Shown: piece by piece, positions 136 through 49,274 of the stretch
How the letters are laid out: every line of letters begins with the position of its first letter
How positions within the stretch are numbered: the stretch's first letter is position 1
Assembly: GCA_024681875.1 (NCBI GenBank)
Contig: JAILAA010000124.1
Span: 1 to 52,500, forward strand
DNA length: 52,500 nt
Source: Prevotella sp.
GTDB taxonomy: Bacteria; Bacteroidota; Bacteroidia; Bacteroidales; Bacteroidaceae
Reading direction: 5' to 3'
Notes under the pieces: model-generated
The model's database searches: none
What the model was told of the DNA's origin: nothing
Seen by the model: the letters and a program-made list of their open reading frames with translations, nothing else
Made by a program: the position numbers and the translations under genes

Positions 136-154
136 AGATGCCAAATTGGCATCT
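136..154. repeat. 19-bp inverted repeat at the stop codon of the ORF6N gene
   Basis: AGATGCCAA and TTGGCATCT are perfect arms around a single A. The last base overlaps the TGA stop of the ORF6N gene. About 22 bases on its right side (through TCTCAAGA) recur at 535-555 inside the same gene with one difference. It could be an operator, part of a 3' hairpin, or a trace of internal rearrangement. Confidence 0.6.
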
Positions 155-735
155 CAAGAATCTTCTTCGTCTTTGGGTTGAATAAAGCCAATGGGACGGC
201 GCTTGTTTAAGGTCGCATTTTGCGACCTTGAAGCTTGCAGTTCTGCTAATGCAGTGCTGATAGCATCAAGTTGGGCACGCGTACTCTCGTTGATGTCGTT
301 CTGATCAGCAAGAATATCGTTGACCTCGTTTCTGAGATCTTCAATTTGCTTTCTCAGGTCGAGATAGGTTGCAGCGAGGGGTAGTTCTGCCAGATGGCGA
401 TAGGCAACGAAAGCTCGCATAATCTTTCGGTTTGCCTTAACGGCAACTTTAGATTTGAGGACTCCGCTTAACATGGCAACTCCAATTTCAGTGAAGGCAA
501 AAGCTCCGTATCTGCTACCACCCCAACTTGAGGTGCCAATTTGGCATCTCAAGAGTTCTTCATGGGTAAGTTCAAACATAAAGTCCTCTCCTTCAAAGCG
601 TTCGATATTGCGTCGAACTTGGCGTTTGAGGTGCGCAGTCTCTACTTCATAGATGCGTGCCAAATCGAAATCGAGCATCACGCGCTGACCTCTTATGAAG
701 TAAATTTTGGATTGGATGTTTTGTAGGTCGTCCAT
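154..735 (-). CDS. ORF6N domain-containing DNA-binding protein
   Basis: This 193-residue protein has an N-terminal ORF6N domain (about residues 8-100), recognisable from the MLDFDLARIYEVET stretch, LKRQVRRNIERF, and the TSSWGG...AFTEIGVAMLSG block. The family (KilA-N/ORF6N/RhuM group) is found in phage and in bacterial accessory regions and is thought to bind DNA. Residues 120-165 look like a coiled coil, followed by a basic tail (NKRRPIGF). It is transcribed divergently from the type III Res gene 98 bp away. In Bacteroidales such genes often accompany restriction loci, which is context and not proof of function. Two palindromes sit inside the coding region and one at the stop, an odd density. 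The ATG at 735 follows a clear promoter. Confidence 0.85.
   Translation of the reverse strand: MDDLQNIQSKIYFIRGQRVMLDFDLARIYEVETAHLKRQVRRNIERFEGEDFMFELTHEELLRCQIGTSSWGGSRYGAFAFTEIGVAMLSGVLKSKVAVKANRKIMRAFVAYRHLAELPLAATYLDLRKQIEDLRNEVNDILADQNDINESTRAQLDAISTALAELQASRSQNATLNKRRPIGFIQPKDEEDS
209..229. repeat. perfect inverted repeat inside the ORF6N gene
   Basis: AAGGTCGCA, a TTT spacer, then TGCGACCTT. It lies in the part of the gene that encodes the C-terminal tail (around SQNATLNKR), a region not conserved in the family, so it may be an inserted palindrome. Confidence 0.55.
527..553. repeat. 27-bp near-perfect inverted repeat within ORF6N coding sequence
   Basis: The arms of CTTGAGGTGCCAA-T-TTGGCATCTCAAG pair along 13 bp with a single mismatch. 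It overlaps the codons for the conserved QIGTSS stretch and shares its core with the palindrome at the gene's stop codon. Confidence 0.55.
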
Positions 736-789: not shown

Positions 790-853
790 TCTTTAGTAAA
801 AAAGATGATAATGGTGTCACTTATGAGTAGTAATGACTAGAAATGAAATAGAT

Positions 854-3800
854 ATGAAACTGAAGTTTAAACATCAGCAATTCCAGATAGACGCTGCGAG
901 GGCAGTAACAAATGTCTTTCAAGGACAGCCCAACCAGTCGATGCAGGAGTTTACCCACGATATGGGCCGTAGTATGGATGGCACACAGGATATGTTCGAC
1001 GTTGTGGGCTTCCGCAACCAGCCGGTGCGTGTGATGACGCAGCAACTGCTGAACAATATGCGGTCGATACAGATGGACGCCCAGCTGAAGCCCTCGGAAG
1101 AAGTGCTGCTCGGCGACATGCGACTGACCATAGAGATGGAGACGGGTACGGGTAAGACCTATACGTATATCAAGACGATGTTCGAGTTGAACCGTCTGTA
1201 TGGCTGGAGCAAGTTTATCATCGTGGTGCCCAGCATTGCTATCCGCGAGGGTGTCAGTCGTTCGTTCGAGATAATGAGCGAGCACTTTGCAGCAGAATAT
1301 GGAAAGCGCATACAGAGTTTTATCTACGACTCGAAGCAGCTGACAAAGATAGACCAGTTTGCCAGCGATGCCAACATGCACGTGATGATTATCAATACGC
1401 AGGCCTTTGCAGCACGTGGCGAGGATGCACGACGTATCTATATGAAGCTGGATGCCTTCCGCAGTCGCAGGCCTATCGATGTGATAGCTGCCACGAATCC
1501 CATCTTGATTATCGATGAGCCGCAGTCGGTATTGGGTGCTGACCGCAATAACGCCACTCGAACAAAGCTGAAGGAGTTCAAGCCACTCTTTACCTTGTTA
1601 TATAGTGCTACCCACAGGGCAGGCGACATTGTGAATATGGTGTACAGACTGGATGCGATGGATGCCTATAACAAAAAGCTGGTAAAGAAAATCACCGTGA
1701 AGGGTATCGAGCAGAAAGGCACGACTGCCACTAATGGCTATCTGTATCTGGAGAGTATCGAACTGAGCGAGGGTAATCCGCGAGCACGTATCGGCTTCGA
1801 CAAGAAGGGCGCAAGCAGCGTGAAGCAGATGACGCAGTTGGTGGGTGACGGCTTCGACATCTATCAACAGAGTGGGGGATTGGAGGAGTATAAGAATGGC
1901 TATCGTGTGGAGAGCATTGATGGCTACAATCGCACCATCCGTCTGCTGAACGGCACTGTGCTGCATGAGGGTGAGATGACAGGACGCGTGAACGATGTCT
2001 ATGTGCGTCGCCATCAGATTCGTGAGACCATCCTGTCGCATATCCAGAAAGAAAGGAAGCTGTTCAAGATGGGTATCAAGTGCCTGTCGCTGTTCTTTAT
2101 TGACCATGTGGATAATTATAGGGATCCTCACCCCCTAACCCCCTCTCCGAGGGGCGAGGGGGAACCCTGCGGCAAAGGCATCTACGCACAGATGTTTGAA
2201 GAGGAATATACGAATATTGTGGGGCAGTTGCAATTGGAGTTAGCTGATGACCCTGACTACGTGGCTTACCTGAAACGGTTTACGGCAGAACAGGTTCACG
2301 ATGGCTATTTCTCACGCGACAAGAAGAACAATGTGGTGGAGTCGGGTAACAAAGAAGGTGACAATGAGGTGCGTGGCTATCAGCTTATCATGAAGGAGAA
2401 AGAAAAACTATTGTCGTTTGATACACCTGTGCGTTTCATCTTCTCGCACTCTGCCCTAAAGGAAGGATGGGACAATCCCAATGTATTCCAGATATGTACG
2501 CTGAAGGACTCCGACAATCAGACAAAGAAACGCCAGGAGGTGGGGCGTGGTATGCGCCTCTGTGTGAACAGCAAGGGTGAGCGTCAGGACGAGAGTGTGC
2601 TGCATGGAGCCGTATTCGATGTGAACGAACTTACTGTTATTGCCAGCGAGTCGTATCACTCGTTTGCCTCGAAGTTGCAGACGGAGATAGCAGAGGCTGT
2701 GGCAGATCGTCCGCAGAAGGTACAGCCCAGTCTGTTCAAGGATATGCTTGTCACTAACGCACGAGGCGAACAGAAGAAACTGGATGAAGACGATGCGCAA
2801 GACATCCTCTTTAACATGCGCATGAAAGGCTATGTGACCAAGCAAGGCCAGTTGACCCAGCAATACCATGACGACAAGAAGGAAGGTACGTTAGACTTTG
2901 GCGACGACTATAACGACTATAAGGAAGACATCGTGAAGCGTCTCGACAGTATTTTCAATCCAGAGAGCGTTAAGCCAGAGGATGCAAGGCGAGTACGCGA
3001 AGCCAAATTCGACCAGCAGAAGTTTGCACGCAAAGAATTCCAAGACTTGTGGCGAAAAATCAATCAGCAGACGTACTATACTGTTGACTTCAAGACGGAA
3101 GATTTGATTAAACGTGCTGTCATCGAATTGGATGCCAAATTGCAGGTGTCAGAAATAAGAATTCATGTGGTGACTGGTACCATGAATGATATCAAGAGCC
3201 GTCAGCAGTTATTGGAAGGTGGTGCAATGGTAGCCCGTGAGTCTGAAACAGAAAGTGTTCATGAACTGGTGGGTGAAAATGTAAGGTATGATTTGATAGG
3301 GAAACTGGTGGAGGCTACAGGACTGACACGTATCGCTATCGTGAGTATCCTGAAAAAAATCCGCACCATGACCTTCAATAAGTTCAAGGCCAACCCTGAG
3401 GAGTTTATCATCAAGGCTGGTAACATCATCAACCAATGTAAGGCAATTGCTGTGGTAGAACATGTGAAGTATCATAAGCTCAACCAAGAATTTGATTCGG
3501 ATATCTTTAGTGCAGCTACGTTGAAGGGAAAGCTGGGTGTGAATGCATTAGAATCTGCGAAATCGCTCTACGATATCGTGGTGGTTGATTCGAAAGGCAT
3601 TGAGATGAACTTCGCCAAGGAATTGGAGATACAGAACAAGGTGGCAGTCTATACCAAACTGCCAGGTGGATTCTTTATCAATACGCCTGTAGGTCATTAC
3701 AACCCCGACTGGGCCATCGTGTTTAAAGAAGGAACAGACATCAAGCACATCTACTTTGTGGCAGAGACAAAGGGCTATAGCGATGACGAGGTAACTGACT

Positions 3801-3925
3801 ATAGAGAGACGGAGCGCGTGAAGATAGAATGTGCCAAGCGCCATTTTGACACCATCTCCAGTTCTGCTGTCAATTATGGTGTCGTGAAGAACTACGAAGA
3901 ATTATTGAATATTGTGACAAAATGA
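854..3925 (+). CDS. type III restriction-modification enzyme subunit R (Res)
   Basis: This large helicase-nuclease would be the cleavage subunit of a type III restriction system, acting with a Mod methyltransferase. Visible motifs are Walker A ETGTGKTYTY near residue 95, DEPQ near 220, helicase motif VI QEVGRGMRL near 560, and a C-terminal PD-(D/E)XK-like signature (NPDWAIVF then FVAETKG, about 950-975). I chose the ATG at 854 because MKLKFKHQQFQ resembles the usual start; an in-frame ATG at 833 is possible. No Mod gene is in the window, so it is either orphaned or paired with a gene to the left. A G/C-rich palindrome at 2126-2166 adds about 15 residues (PHPLTPSPRGEGE) between two helicase blocks without breaking the frame. 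Confidence 0.9.
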   Translation: MKLKFKHQQFQIDAARAVTNVFQGQPNQSMQEFTHDMGRSMDGTQDMFDVVGFRNQPVRVMTQQLLNNMRSIQMDAQLKPSEEVLLGDMRLTIEMETGTGKTYTYIKTMFELNRLYGWSKFIIVVPSIAIREGVSRSFEIMSEHFAAEYGKRIQSFIYDSKQLTKIDQFASDANMHVMIINTQAFAARGEDARRIYMKLDAFRSRRPIDVIAATNPILIIDEPQSVLGADRNNATRTKLKEFKPLFTLLYSATHRAGDIVNMVYRLDAMDAYNKKLVKKITVKGIEQKGTTATNGYLYLESIELSEGNPRARIGFDKKGASSVKQMTQLVGDGFDIYQQSGGLEEYKNGYRVESIDGYNRTIRLLNGTVLHEGEMTGRVNDVYVRRHQIRETILSHIQKERKLFKMGIKCLSLFFIDHVDNYRDPHPLTPSPRGEGEPCGKGIYAQMFEEEYTNIVGQLQLELADDPDYVAYLKRFTAEQVHDGYFSRDKKNNVVESGNKEGDNEVRGYQLIMKEKEKLLSFDTPVRFIFSHSALKEGWDNPNVFQICTLKDSDNQTKKRQEVGRGMRLCVNSKGERQDESVLHGAVFDVNELTVIASESYHSFASKLQTEIAEAVADRPQKVQPSLFKDMLVTNARGEQKKLDEDDAQDILFNMRMKGYVTKQGQLTQQYHDDKKEGTLDFGDDYNDYKEDIVKRLDSIFNPESVKPEDARRVREAKFDQQKFARKEFQDLWRKINQQTYYTVDFKTEDLIKRAVIELDAKLQVSEIRIHVVTGTMNDIKSRQQLLEGGAMVARESETESVHELVGENVRYDLIGKLVEATGLTRIAIVSILKKIRTMTFNKFKANPEEFIIKAGNIINQCKAIAVVEHVKYHKLNQEFDSDIFSAATLKGKLGVNALESAKSLYDIVVVDSKGIEMNFAKELEIQNKVAVYTKLPGGFFINTPVGHYNPDWAIVFKEGTDIKHIYFVAETKGYSDDEVTDYRETERVKIECAKRHFDTISSSAVNYGVVKNYEELLNIVTK
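2126..2166. repeat. C/G-rich hairpin repeat inserted in frame in res
   Basis: A run of C-rich blocks (CCTCACCCCCTAACCCCC) is followed by the complementary GAGGGGCGAGGGGG, forming a strong hairpin. Read in frame it gives PHPLTPSPRGEGE. The composition contrasts with the flanking DNA. It is the same family as the ends of the DUF559 cassette at 47915-48529 and the pair at 32301-32392. Confidence 0.75.
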
Positions 3926-32718: not shown

Positions 32719-32960
32719 CATGATTATCCACAATCGTACCACCATCGGCCTGAACGGCCAATACCTCATAGCCCAGGGCAGTGCCCTGGGTACAGGGATG
32801 TGGGTACTTTCGCCCTGTAAGGGCAAAAATAAAAATGTAACGATACGGCTTTTGCCCTTTCAGTGCGAGCATCGGACCATCCGTCAACCCAGGGCGCTGC
32901 CCTGGGCTAAGAGCACTCTGTCCCTTCGGGGCGCTGGTGGTACAATTGCGGATAATCATA
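32719..32960. repeat. 242-bp imperfect palindromic element between metA and the U32 gene
   Basis: The outer 24 bp (TGATTATCCACAATCGTACC plus ACCA, 32721-32744) recur inverted at 32935-32958 with two differences. Inside, an inverted pair of GCCCAGGGCA(G/C)(T/C)GCCCTGGGT blocks (32771-32791 and 32887-32907) and a GGGCAAAA pair follow the same symmetry. No credible protein is encoded. It fits a MITE-like or other non-autonomous repeat; no target duplication is clear. It accounts for the whole 280-bp gap. Confidence 0.75.
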
Positions 32961-46615: not shown

Positions 46616-46843
46616 ATGGCAAAAATGAAAGGCGCCATCGTCATCGACACCGCCCGTTGCAAGGGATGCGTGCTCTGCGTGGAAGCATGTCCGCAGAACG
46701 TCATCGCACTCGCCGGCAAAGTCAATGTACATGGCTATCCCTATGTAGAAGCCGTCAACGAGGAGGCCTGCGTGGGCTGCGCTTCCTGCGGCATCGTGTG
46801 TCCCGACGGATGCATCACAGTTTATCGTAAGAAAATCAGTTAG
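46616..46843 (+). CDS. 2-oxoacid:ferredoxin oxidoreductase, ferredoxin-like (delta) subunit
   Basis: 75 residues with two CxxCxxCxxxC[P] sites (CKGCVLCVEACPQ and CVGCASCGIVCPDG) for two [4Fe-4S] clusters. It carries electrons between the TPP centre of the complex and ferredoxin. First gene of the operon; its stop TAG is 2 bp before the ATG of the next subunit. Confidence 0.92.
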   Translation: MAKMKGAIVIDTARCKGCVLCVEACPQNVIALAGKVNVHGYPYVEAVNEEACVGCASCGIVCPDGCITVYRKKIS

Positions 46844-46845
46844 TG

Positions 46846-47958
46846 ATGGAACAGAAAGAAGTCGTATTGATGAAAGGCAACGAGGCCATCGCCCGCGCTG
46901 CCATCCGCTGCGGAGTAGACGGATACTTCGGCTATCCCATCACCCCGCAGAGCGAAGTAATCGAGACGCTGGCTGAGCTGAAGCCCTGGGAGACCACTGG
47001 TATGCAGGTGGTGCAGGCTGAGAGCGAGCTGGCAAGTATCTATATGGTCTATGGCGCTGCCGGAGCCGGCAAGCGCGCTATGACCTCCAGCAGCTCGCCC
47101 GGTGTAGCGCTGATGCAGGAAGGCATCACCTATCTGGCAGGCGCAGAGCTGCCCGCACTCATCGTTAATGTGCAACGTGGCGGTCCCGGTCTGGGCACCA
47201 TCCAGCCCTCTCAGGGCGACTATTTCCAGGCCACACGTGGTGGCGGCAACGGCGACTACAACGTCATCGTGCTGGCGCCCGCTTCCGTACAGGAAATGGC
47301 CGACTTCGTTGACCTTGCCTTCGAGCTGGCCTTTAAGTATCGCAACCCCGCCATGATTCTCAGCGACGGCGTCATAGGCCAGATGATGGAGAAGGTGGTG
47401 TTGCCGCCGTTCAAGCCCCGTCGCACTGACGAGGAGGTCATCGCCCAGTGTCCCTGGGCCTCGACAGGCAAGAAGAAAGGCACCGTACGCCGCGTTGTTA
47501 CCTCTCTGGAGCTGAAGCCAGAGATTATGGAACAGCGCAACCTTGCTCTGCAGGAGAAATACCGCCAGATCAAAGAGAACGAGGTGCGCTACGAGACACA
47601 GCAGCTGGACGACGCCGAGTATATGATTGTGGCCTTCGGTTCTGCCGCCCGCATCGCTGAGAAGAGCGTGGAGCTGGCCCGTGCCGAGGGCATCAAGGTG
47701 GGTCTCTTCCGTCCCATCACGCTGTGGCCATTCCCCACGAAGGAGATTGCCGCAATGGCCCTGGGCAAGAAGGGTGTGCTCGTTGCAGAAATCAACGCCG
47801 GCCAGATGGTGCAGGACGTGCGCCTGAGCATCAACGGCGCTGTGCCTGTGGAGCAGTTCGGCCGTCTCGGCGGCATCGTACCCGACCCTGAAGAAATCGT
47901 AGAAGCGCTAAAACGCCTCACCCCCAACCCCTCCCGCGGAGGGGAGGGGAGTAATTAG
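46846..47958 (+). CDS. vorB: 2-oxoacid:ferredoxin oxidoreductase subunit alpha (VorB type)
   Basis: About 370 residues: VVLMKGNEAIARAAIRCGVDGYFGYPITPQSEV is the usual start of the 2-oxoisovalerate/2-oxoglutarate type alpha subunit; QRGGPGLGTIQPSQGDYFQATRGGGNGDY and the C-terminal FPTKEI...EINAGQMVQDVRLSI follow. The complex makes or uses branched-chain acyl-CoA with reduced ferredoxin; 2-oxoglutarate is an alternative substrate. The start is the ATG at 46846. The last residues (LTPNPSRGGEGSN) and the stop codon are encoded by the left inverted repeat of the DUF559 cassette, so the natural C-terminus has been replaced. Confidence 0.9.
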   Translation: MEQKEVVLMKGNEAIARAAIRCGVDGYFGYPITPQSEVIETLAELKPWETTGMQVVQAESELASIYMVYGAAGAGKRAMTSSSSPGVALMQEGITYLAGAELPALIVNVQRGGPGLGTIQPSQGDYFQATRGGGNGDYNVIVLAPASVQEMADFVDLAFELAFKYRNPAMILSDGVIGQMMEKVVLPPFKPRRTDEEVIAQCPWASTGKKKGTVRRVVTSLELKPEIMEQRNLALQEKYRQIKENEVRYETQQLDDAEYMIVAFGSAARIAEKSVELARAEGIKVGLFRPITLWPFPTKEIAAMALGKKGVLVAEINAGQMVQDVRLSINGAVPVEQFGRLGGIVPDPEEIVEALKRLTPNPSRGGEGSN

Positions 47959-48529
47959 ACTCTTCGCTGAAAGAATTCGCAGAAAGGCCACAGAAAGAAG
48001 GTTATAGAATCTTCGTAGAAAGTAGCCGAAGAAAGTAGGTTAATAGAATCGCTGCAGAAATGTAGAATTGATGGCTGATATAGAACGGAAACACGAGACT
48101 GCATCGCCTGACAGGTATGACTTGCTGAAAGAGTTTGCTAGACATAACCGACGGGAGATGACCAAGAGCGAGACAGTGCTATGGCAGGCTCTACGAAACG
48201 AGTTCAGAGGTATTAAATTCCGCCGTCAGCATCCTATTGGAGATTATATAGCAGACTTTCTCTGTTTGACGGAAAAGCTGGTCATTGAAGTGGACGGTGC
48301 ATATCACAGCGAGCCACAACAGCAGCAGGAAGACCTATGGCGCACAGAGTTCCTTCAAGACAAAGGCTATAAGGTAATCCGCTTTACTAATGAAGAAGTA
48401 AACACCAATGTAAAAGGTGTAATCAGAAGAATAAAAGAAGAACTTTTTAACAATAATGATTATGAATGATAATCAATCTTCAAATGTAACTACTCCCCTC
48501 CCCCCCGAGGGAGGGGCCGGGGGTGAGGC
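47915..48529. mobile_element. putative DUF559 cassette with 42-bp terminal inverted repeats
   Basis: The ends are 47915-47956 and, inverted, 48488-48529; they agree at 37 of 42 positions, beginning GCCTCACCCCC and ending GGGGAGTA(A/G)TT. Each end can also fold on itself. Between them lie about 110 bp of TTCGC(A/T)GAAAG-like degenerate words, one DUF559 nuclease gene, and the start codon of the next operon gene. The unit separates two subunit genes of one enzyme that are otherwise tightly coupled. No target duplication is obvious. Movement is inferred from structure; it has not been shown. Confidence 0.65.
48071..48469 (+). CDS. DUF559 (Vsr/PD-(D/E)XK-like) endonuclease-domain protein
   Basis: 132 residues, nearly all one DUF559 domain: LLKEFARHNRREMTKSETVLWQALR, KFRRQHPIGDYIADFLCL, KLVIEVDGAYH (the D...E-x-D core expected for the nuclease site), and GYKVIRFTNEEV. 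The family is related to the very-short-patch-repair nuclease fold; its biology is little known. The ATG at 48071 is preferred to the TTG at 48068. It has no metabolic link to the flanking oxidoreductase genes and is flanked by inverted repeats. Its stop (48467-48469) overlaps the start of the next subunit, so the two are translationally coupled. Confidence 0.85.
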   Translation: MADIERKHETASPDRYDLLKEFARHNRREMTKSETVLWQALRNEFRGIKFRRQHPIGDYIADFLCLTEKLVIEVDGAYHSEPQQQQEDLWRTEFLQDKGYKVIRFTNEEVNTNVKGVIRRIKEELFNNNDYE

Positions 48530-49274
48530 TTGGTCTCTCGTCTATAAGAAGCCGACGCTCCTGAACGACAATAACATGCACTACTGTCCGGGCTGCTCGC
48601 ACGGTGTGGTGCACAAGCTCATCGCCGAAGTCATCGAGGAGATGGGAATGGAAGAGAAGGCCATTGGCGTGAGCCCCGTGGGTTGTGCCGTTTTCGCCTA
48701 CAACTATATTGATATCGACTGGCAGGAGGCTGCCCACGGACGCGCACCCGCTATTGCCACAGGCATCAAGCGCTGCTGGCCCGACCGCCTCGTGTTCACC
48801 TATCAGGGCGACGGCGACCTGGCTTGTATCGGCACTTGTGAGACCATCCACGCCCTGAACCGCGGCGAGAACATCGTCATCATCTTCGTCAACAATGCCA
48901 TCTACGGCATGACGGGCGGACAGATGGCTCCCACCACGCTGCTCGGCCAGAAAACATCGACCTGTCCTTACGGCCGCGACCCGAAACTGCATGGCTATCC
49001 CCTGAAGATGGCAGATATCGCCGCAGGACTGGAGGGCACTTGTTACGTCACACGCCAGTCGGTGGAGAGCGTCGCCAGCATCCTCAAGGCCAAGAAGGCG
49101 CTGAAGAAGGCGTTCCAGGCCTCGATGGACGGCAAGGGCTCAAGCCTCGTGGAGTTCGTCTCTACCTGCAACAGCGGCTGGAAGCTTACTCCCGCCAAAG
49201 CAAATGAATGGATGAAGGAAAACATGTTCCCATTCTATCCCAAAGGTGACTTAAAAGACACTACAGCATTATGA
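48456..49274 (+). CDS. 2-oxoacid:ferredoxin oxidoreductase TPP-binding (beta) subunit
   Basis: 272 residues. From LVYKKPTLLNDNNMHYCPGCSHG on, it is the TPP-binding subunit: GVSPVGCAVFAYNY, the GDGDLACIGTCETIHALNRGENI...NNAIYGMTGGQ thiamine diphosphate/metal motif. The first 27 or so residues (including TTPLPPEGGAGGEA) come from the right end of the DUF559 cassette and the 3' end of the nuclease gene; relatives usually have a different short start. The ATG at 48456 overlaps the DUF559 stop; the ATG at 48462 is an alternative. The next gene starts 4 bp before its end (ATGA). Confidence 0.92.
   Translation: MIMNDNQSSNVTTPLPPEGGAGGEAWSLVYKKPTLLNDNNMHYCPGCSHGVVHKLIAEVIEEMGMEEKAIGVSPVGCAVFAYNYIDIDWQEAAHGRAPAIATGIKRCWPDRLVFTYQGDGDLACIGTCETIHALNRGENIVIIFVNNAIYGMTGGQMAPTTLLGQKTSTCPYGRDPKLHGYPLKMADIAAGLEGTCYVTRQSVESVASILKAKKALKKAFQASMDGKGSSLVEFVSTCNSGWKLTPAKANEWMKENMFPFYPKGDLKDTTAL

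What the first reader, a model, noticed from the sequence alone, without database searches (positions are those of the whole stretch)
47915..48529. DUF559 nuclease gene as a cassette with 42-bp inverted ends, spliced into an oxidoreductase operon
Seen: 47915-47956 and the reverse complement of 48488-48529 agree at 37 of 42 positions, and the only gene between them is a DUF559 protein. The left end writes the last residues and stop codon of vorB. The cassette also carries the start codon and N-terminus of the TPP subunit. Known: DUF559 has the Vsr/PD-(D/E)XK-like fold, and some relatives of that fold are homing or nicking nucleases. Inferred: a small selfish element that moves or spreads these hairpin ends and joins operons without blocking downstream expression. 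This is the strongest candidate for an undescribed system here.
Basis: partly seen in the sequence, partly recalled or inferred. Interest (0 to 1): 0.87.

Follow-up and report, generated by a model that had tools for sequence, protein, structure and literature searches.

The report
Nuclease cassettes at operon gene junctions
A small DNA-cutting-enzyme gene with matching hairpin ends appears to be one copy of a widespread, apparently undescribed mobile element that settles between neighbouring bacterial genes, sometimes supplying a new stop for one gene and a new start for the next.

Summary
The inverted repeat is real (37 of 42; score 61 against at most 29 in 2000 shuffles) and encloses a DUF559 nuclease-like gene. 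It is no one-off. Matched inverted hairpin repeats flank 58 of 66 related DUF559 loci, and 21 of 28 Prevotella and 17 of 29 Pseudomonadota genes picked by Pfam score; shuffled flanks of the Pfam-picked sets reach that in 1 of 1720. The repeats also occur alone: 46 of 55 close pairs point head-outward, none head-inward, as in REPINs, though 15 of 23 genomes lack a strong Y1/RAYT match. Seventeen host-gene junctions were named; at the three examined, related genomes have the empty junction. At vor and ior the cassette supplies the upstream stop and the downstream start plus an in-frame leader; two ior relics without detectable nuclease keep the leader. The model resembles I-Bth0305I and Vsr. Best reading: a REP-like mobile element with a Vsr-like nuclease, locked into operons. 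Movement and cleavage are inferred. Against: many DUF559 genes lack such ends, and dN/dS of 0.06-0.09 allows a host role.

The parts
47915..47957 (+). left end: head GCCTCACCCCC (47915-47925), hairpin CCCCTCCC/GGGAGGGG (47928-47949), tail AGTAATTA; also codes the C-terminal tail and stop of the upstream subunit
48487..48529 (-). right end: inverted copy of the left end, head outward; read on the + strand as the linker TPLPPEGGAGGEA of the TPP subunit
48068..48469 (+). DUF559 (PF04480) Vsr-like nuclease gene, 133 aa (alternative start ATG 48071)
48456..48486 (+). inside start of the downstream gene (ATG 48456/48462; 48462 overlaps the DUF559 stop) and leader MNDNQSSNVT
46843..47958 (+). upstream host gene (POR_N/PFOR_II subunit), whose last residues and stop are coded by the left end
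48456..49274 (+). downstream host gene (TPP_enzyme_C subunit), whose N-terminus is coded by the cassette

Best explanation
The cassette is one copy of a REP-like mobile element: a single small Vsr/EDxHD-like nuclease (DUF559) bounded by two inverted hairpin ends, in Prevotella with a conserved head on the outside, together with nuclease-free relatives that keep the ends. Shown: the ends go with the nuclease across many sites; orthologous junctions exist with and without the cassette; the same ends are dispersed in head-outward pairs; the cassettes sit at gene junctions; at some sites the upstream gene stops in the left end and the downstream gene starts in the cassette and reads through the right end as a Pro/Gly-rich linker; relics without a detectable nuclease keep that leader. 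Inferred: the nuclease binds or cuts these hairpin ends (or the target) and so drives copying into junctions, with a small loss of target DNA that can remove the native stop and start; once the host gene starts from the cassette, losing it is costly, so the element is locked in and inherited.
For: Flanking repeats: 58 of 66, 21 of 28, 17 of 29, and 27 of 29 (this last set overlaps the first); shuffled flanks of the three Pfam-picked sets 1 of 1720. Shifted windows in the same loci (three best scores printed per locus) reached 40 or more in only 4 loci. Loci at different sites stop being alike near the ends in the part that was shown. Ends co-vary with the nuclease. 17 distinct downstream genes named. 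Empty junctions: vor 24 of 30, 13 of them tight; ior 15 of 30 tight; acd 8 of 30 with the start overlapping the stop or at most 5 bp behind it. Stop-start exchange at ior: empty MKKDIILCG directly behind iorA; filled iorA ...KTLPQTPPLQGGE* and MNNNQSKLSTPLPTREGSGGGS-DIILCG. Relics L250 and L270 at ior (no DUF559 at E <= 1e-3), L290 at acd. Similar leader before fmt (with DUF559) and before an ABC ATPase gene (without); 120-bp mini cassette L274. Dispersed repeats: up to 79 per genome; 46 of 55 close pairs head-outward, 5 and 4 tandem, 0 head-inward; six of 21 pairs span exactly 239 bp. Repeats in 45 of 61 genomes with a full DUF559 against 17 of 50 without (p 4e-5). Fold: I-Bth0305I E 4e-5, Vsr E 0.014.
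Against: No insertion or excision was seen between near-identical genomes, and no target rule or duplication emerged. Many DUF559 genes lack such ends (12 of 29 Pseudomonadota, E. coli ycjD). Seven genomes carry 5-15 repeats with no DUF559 found (assemblies may be incomplete). dN/dS 0.06-0.09 within site groups suggests use by the host or repeated refreshment. DUF559 distances follow those of the flanking genes at ior only. At asnS the leader looks by eye like the gene's own native start, and the native VorA start resembles the vor leader, so the right end may at times insert separately behind a native start. Outside Bacteroidota the head can lie on the gene side (L054-L056) and the downstream gene was not shown to be co-directional (L054, L056, L057).
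Confidence: 0.68

Rival explanations
1. Passenger: the repeats are REPs moved in trans by a RAYT (Y1 transposase) or another enzyme, and DUF559 is a passenger gene that happens to lie between two of them.
For: Repeats behave like REPINs; 8 of 23 genomes have a strong Y1 match (about 50 bits or more) and 18 of 23 some match; 17 of 50 genomes without DUF559 still have repeats.
Against: Five of 23 genomes have no Y1 match and ten only weak ones; G012 has 13 repeats and none. The flanking repeats follow DUF559 in several phyla and vary with it. GTAG or CTAC occurs in or near 30 of 116 ends only.
Confidence: 0.12
2. Host gene: DUF559 is a domesticated gene kept for the host (repair, defence or RNA processing), and the hairpins are regulatory or RNA-processing sites, so that the transcript loop with the nuclease is cut out as in 23S rRNA intervening sequences.
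For: dN/dS 0.06-0.09 in 8 of 10 site groups, the other two without usable pairs; translation coupling of DUF559 with the downstream gene; a DUF559 protein, VsrA of C. crescentus, has a phenotype (PMC12907096, passages); among the four best fold matches is a mitoribosomal protein of Toxoplasma (E 9.7e-4).
Against: Patchy presence at each site, many unrelated sites, nuclease-free dispersed pairs, relics; no Rfam match.
Confidence: 0.15
3. Passive spread: junctions rich in palindromes are recombination hot spots, and DUF559 with its neighbouring repeats is shuffled by homologous recombination between repeats, without any action of its own.
For: In two related genomes repeats lie at breaks of gene order; IVP cassettes with other ends use the same acd and ior junctions.
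Against: Clean occupied and empty junctions without any repeat in the empty form; matched end pairs of fixed length.
Confidence: 0.05

Closest known systems
REPINs / REP doublets with RAYT (TnpA-REP) transposases
   Same: Short hairpin repeats, dispersed, mostly as inverted pairs of preferred spacing, with one enzyme gene beside such repeats (PMC3116915, passages; PMC8266576, passages).
   Different: The enzyme is a Vsr-like nuclease, not an HUH Y1 transposase; no conserved GTAG; the ends bound the enzyme gene itself; stop-start exchange in operons.
EDxHD homing endonucleases (I-Bth0305I)
   Same: Catalytic domain alike in sequence and predicted fold; one paper already files an intein-associated DUF559 gene under EDxHD (PMC9403480, passages).
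   Different: Free-standing cassette with hairpin ends at many unrelated sites; no additional DNA-binding domain (compare PMC3943268, passages).
Vsr mismatch endonuclease and C. crescentus VsrA
   Same: Vsr fold match E 0.014; VsrA carries a DUF559 domain (PMC12907096, passages).
   Different: A link to a cytosine methylase was not looked for here; cassette ends and junction positions are not described for Vsr in the passages seen.
GTAG- and CGTC-tagged REPs
   Same: Palindromic repeats; the CGTC class is said to have no transposase gene beside it and untagged classes are left open (PMC3733652, passages).
   Different: The head here is CTCACCCC-like; the terms nuclease and DUF gave no such link in that paper's text.
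23S rRNA intervening sequences with the S23/IVP protein
   Same: Small selfish element with one small ORF (PMC4990558, start of abstract in the search listing).
   Different: Lies in rRNA and codes an unrelated protein; yet IVP cassettes with their own inverted repeats were found here at the same acd and ior junctions.
Rickettsia palindromic elements (recalled; one search gave listings only)
   Same: Repeats read in frame as protein segments.
   Different: No nuclease-bearing form recalled; other sequence.
Rpn / PDDEXK family transposases (recalled, from no call)
   Same: Nucleases of the PD-(D/E)XK kind tied to mobility.
   Different: Not compared here.

Membership tests
DUF559 (PF04480) | profile match above the gathering score | tested here: met
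   125.1 bits against 20.6
DUF559 (PF04480) | conserved candidate catalytic residues | tested here: met
   E35, R53 Q54 H55, D63, E74, D76, H80 invariant in 29 sequences; that they are catalytic is recalled from the fold family
RAYT/REPIN | enzyme is an HUH Y1 transposase (PF01797) | tested here: not met
   only PF04480 and PF18741 match the protein; fold is Vsr-like
RAYT/REPIN | GTAG tetranucleotide at the hairpin foot | tested here: not met
   GTAG or CTAC in or near 30 of 116 ends, at no fixed place
RAYT/REPIN | repeats dispersed as inverted doublets | tested here: met
   46 of 55 neighbouring pairs within 400 bp head-outward, 0 head-inward
RAYT/REPIN | enzyme cleaves the single-stranded repeat | not testable with these tools
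   needs purified protein
EDxHD homing endonuclease | catalytic domain homologous to I-Bth0305I | tested here: met
   sequence E 0.0022; Foldseek E 3.9e-5, TM 0.76 by target length
EDxHD homing endonuclease | additional DNA-binding modules for a long site | tested here: not met
   133 aa, of which residues 20-126 are the DUF559 domain
EDxHD homing endonuclease | cuts the cognate empty allele | not testable with these tools
   needs purified protein
Mobile element in general | occupied and empty orthologous sites | tested here: met
   vor, ior and acd junctions
Mobile element in general | target-site duplication or fixed target motif | tested here: inconclusive
   none evident at old sites
Mobile element in general | movement observed | not testable with these tools
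   one genome per species is held

The most novel reading that the evidence does not exclude
A separate class of mobile element, present in several bacterial phyla, made of hairpin ends plus a Vsr-like nuclease, that is at home at operon stop-start junctions: it brings its own stop, its own translation-coupled start and a linker-coding end, so it can settle upstream of essential genes and become hard to delete; the IVP cassettes at the same junctions would be a second, unrelated gene family with the same life style.
Probability: 0.45. Interest if true: 0.92.

Novelty: categorically new. Interest (0 to 1): 0.8.

Why it matters
REP-like repeats without a known enzyme are an open question (PMC3733652, passages); this ties one large class to a concrete, testable nuclease family annotated only as DUF559. 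It would explain the Pro/Gly-rich tails (such as LTPNPSRGGEGS and TPLPPEGGAGG) seen here at protein ends, and shows a way in which an element can make itself hard to lose: by taking over the start codon of a host gene. 'Categorically new' rests on failed membership tests and on open-access searches only; a description in a subscription journal would lower it.

Tried and rejected
Recent insertions between sister flanks: 16 locus pairs gave two repeat-bearing indels, neither a clean insertion. Two related genomes with 66 and 79 repeats, 20 stretches of each: few repeats had both flanks together in the other genome, and no clean rule emerged; the motif pattern was faulty (9 and 27 clusters) and was corrected (38 and 52). 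E. coli ycjD as a system with many strains: no flanking repeat (L135, L143). Congruence of DUF559 with its flanks: inconclusive. Concerted evolution of the two ends within a site: own pairs clearly better than other-locus pairs at acd (0.80 against 0.62), little or no difference at most other sites and the reverse at gpsA and mutB; with an equal search on both sides the own right flank is the best of all in 19 of 66. Sense orientation: the naive p (17 of 17) is not used, because sites were named from genes read in the sense of the nuclease; the longest-open-frame method gave both flanks co-directional in only 31 of 57 and misread the strand at several G+C-rich loci (its last line, saving a file, failed after printing). 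Rfam: nothing. Outputs were cut; only the shown part was used.

Papers searched: DUF559 with repeat (9 papers) and alone, REP + endonuclease + Vsr (13, none), COG2852 (40, 4), palindromic repeat + Vsr name (41, none), REP/RAYT/REPIN (42, 21), the string GGGAGAGGG (45, 501 papers of which 30 listed), I-Bth0305I (92, 5), Rickettsia elements (93, 13 of which 8 listed), 23S intervening sequence (104, 41 of which 8 listed). No listed title or abstract start describes DUF559 with such repeats. The library is open-access only.

Full report
Observation. The two arms are as described: 37 of 42, score 61 against at most 29 in 2000 shuffles. Each arm is itself a hairpin with an outer head and an inner A+T-rich tail; as single-stranded DNA the left arm folds at -11.5 kcal/mol (z -2.47) and the right arm at -11.7 (z -1.55, so not remarkable by itself). 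The enclosed protein is DUF559.

It is a family, not a single case. A scan with the window's protein gave 66 loci, mostly rumen Prevotella and other Bacteroidales assemblies. With 300-bp flanks and one procedure, 58 of 66 loci (window plus 65; L021, cut by a contig end, left out) have an inverted repeat of score 33 or more. Genes picked by Pfam score give 21 of 28 (Prevotella group), 17 of 29 (phylum of the Sideroxydans locus) and 27 of 29 (23 genomes; one more cut; this set overlaps the first). Shuffled flanks of these three sets reach 33 in 1 of 1720. Nine further records (wider flanks): Pseudanabaena 128, Sphingomonas 74, Deinococcus 41 (its controls up to 35), N. gonorrhoeae 36 (controls up to 31, unclear), and 20-29 for E. 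coli (two), Synechocystis, Azospirillum and Picosynechococcus. In L054-L056 (Chloroflexi, Melainabacteria, Sideroxydans) the head lies on the gene side, the opposite of Prevotella; by eye it lies outside in L145 and L149, so both arrangements occur.

The ends go with the nuclease. In the shown part, loci at different sites stop being alike near the ends. Ends of one locus resemble each other more than ends of different loci (0.74 against 0.42; the way ends were picked favours the first number), and end distance follows protein distance (Mantel r 0.67, p <= 0.0005, n 55). With an equal search on both sides own flanks score 58.5 on average against 32.9.

The ends also exist without the nuclease. 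A 20-base pattern occurs in 18 of 23 DUF559 genomes and in none in reversed form. In 120 genomes of the Prevotella group repeats occur in 45 of 61 genomes with a full DUF559 and in 17 of 50 without (p 4e-5); nine genomes with only weak or partial matches were left out of the test, and three of them have repeats. Neighbouring repeats within 400 bp, in the listed parts, are head-outward in 46 of 55, tandem in 9 and head-inward in none. In two related genomes six of 21 pairs span exactly 239 bp and three exactly 262 bp, too short to hold DUF559. This is REPIN- or MITE-like. Y1 transposase matches are strong (about 50 bits or more) in 8 of the 23 genomes, weak in 10 and absent in 5.

Sites. Downstream genes named by NCBIfam (several matches lie below the model cut-off and the name is then the best match): gpsA, gyrB/parE, etfA, fabZ, fabG, thrC, der, mutB, asnS, gmk, rseP, corA, smpB, fmt, acyl-CoA dehydrogenase, iorB, and the TPP subunit of the window, 17 in all. 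They are read in the sense of the nuclease, but they were named from that strand, and fmt was found through its leader, so no test is drawn from it; L054, L056 and L057 looked otherwise. A tree of 57 sequences needs 20 changes of site for 19 groups, 18 being the least possible; acd, vor, fabG, fabZ and etfA are not single clades, and L038 (fabG) lies next to L024 (fabZ) on a starred branch.

Empty sites. vor: of the 30 best-matching loci 24 lack DUF559 (13 tight, 11 with other inserts), 4 have it, 2 cannot be read. ior: of 30, 15 tight, 8 with other short inserts, 3 with DUF559, 2 relics, 2 with a ~500-bp insert that proved IVP-like. acd: of 30, 8 tight, 3 with other spacers, 4 with DUF559, 1 relic, 2 mini elements, 5 with IVP cassettes, 7 unreadable.

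Stop-start exchange. At acd the cassette lies between the native stop and the native start. At ior the empty form has iorB (MKKDIILCG) overlapping or within about 6 bp of the iorA stop; the filled form has iorA running into the left end (...KTLPQTPPLQGGE* in L046) and IorB starting in the cassette (MNNNQSKLSTPLPTREGSGGGS-DIILCG). At vor VorB runs into the left end, and VorA starts inside and reads in frame through the right end in the window and all seven other filled loci; the leader is MNNNQ or close to it in seven of the eight and MSEKG in L005. At vor, ior, fmt and the gyrB-like site the new ATG overlaps the DUF559 stop. The similar leader at unrelated genes speaks for a cassette-borne start. 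Against a simple version of this: at asnS the leader (MKRTKIIDLLN) looks by eye like the native start, and the native VorA start (MDNNQ or MDRNQ) resembles the vor leader. In L250 and L270 no nuclease is found, yet IorB still starts with a leader and the right end; L270 keeps what looks by eye like a DUF559 C-terminus. L274 is a 120-bp version without nuclease: left end, new ATG, leader, right end.

The protein. 29 relatives share invariant E35, R53-Q54-H55, D63, E74, D76 and H80. The model (mean pLDDT 81.9) matches N. gonorrhoeae 3hrl (E 2e-7), the I-Bth0305I catalytic domain (4e-5), a Toxoplasma mitoribosomal protein (9.7e-4) and Vsr (0.014). Median dN/dS is 0.06-0.09 in 8 of 10 site groups, the other two having no usable pair (about 120 codons, few usable pairs, synonymous sites near saturation at vor). 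DUF559 differs more than its neighbours (vor 26% against 6-10% of residues) and its distances follow theirs only at ior.

Reading. The simplest account is a REP-like mobile element whose enzyme is a Vsr-like nuclease, kept at operon junctions because host genes come to depend on it. Shown: association, co-variation, occupied and empty sites, nuclease-free copies, stop and start exchange, relics. Inferred: that the nuclease acts on the ends, that it moves them, and how target bases are lost. Purifying selection at fixed sites is the strongest point for a host role and is not explained by selfishness alone.

Literature. Only passages were seen of PMC3733652, PMC9403480, PMC3943268, PMC12907096, PMC3116915 and PMC8266576; PMC4990558 was seen as a search listing. 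None of the searches listed a paper linking DUF559 to these repeats; subscription journals and preprints are mostly not in the library.

Noticed in passing
L292, L298, L300, L302, L304 (acd junction); L251, L253 (ior junction): Cassettes of about 500 bp at the same junctions carry a 23S_rRNA_IVP-type protein (PF05635, E 1e-34 and 2e-35 for L292 and L300; the others by tblastn, weakly for L251 and L253) between their own, different inverted repeats (scores 37-88).
   Followed up: partly
window 2126-2165: A lone copy of the repeat in frame inside a 1030-aa ORF (833-3925), adding PHPLTPSPRGEGEPC to the protein.
   Followed up: partly
window 32720-32959: Nested palindrome with arms of 41, 36 and 19 nt; possibly another miniature element.
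   Followed up: no
window 136-158 and 527-549: 23-nt inverted repeat, 96% complementary, 368 nt apart, within or at the edge of the 193-aa ORF 154-735 on the minus strand.
   Followed up: no
L201-L240 (two related genomes): Many repeats have their two flanks in different places in the other genome, and some lie inside hairpin loops of other repeat families.
   Followed up: partly
L124, L125, L127, L132, L134 (vor junction without DUF559): Other A+T-rich inserts that look palindromic by eye lie at the same junction.
   Followed up: no
L273: A repeat copy in frame inside a long ORF, by eye a glycoside hydrolase.
   Followed up: no
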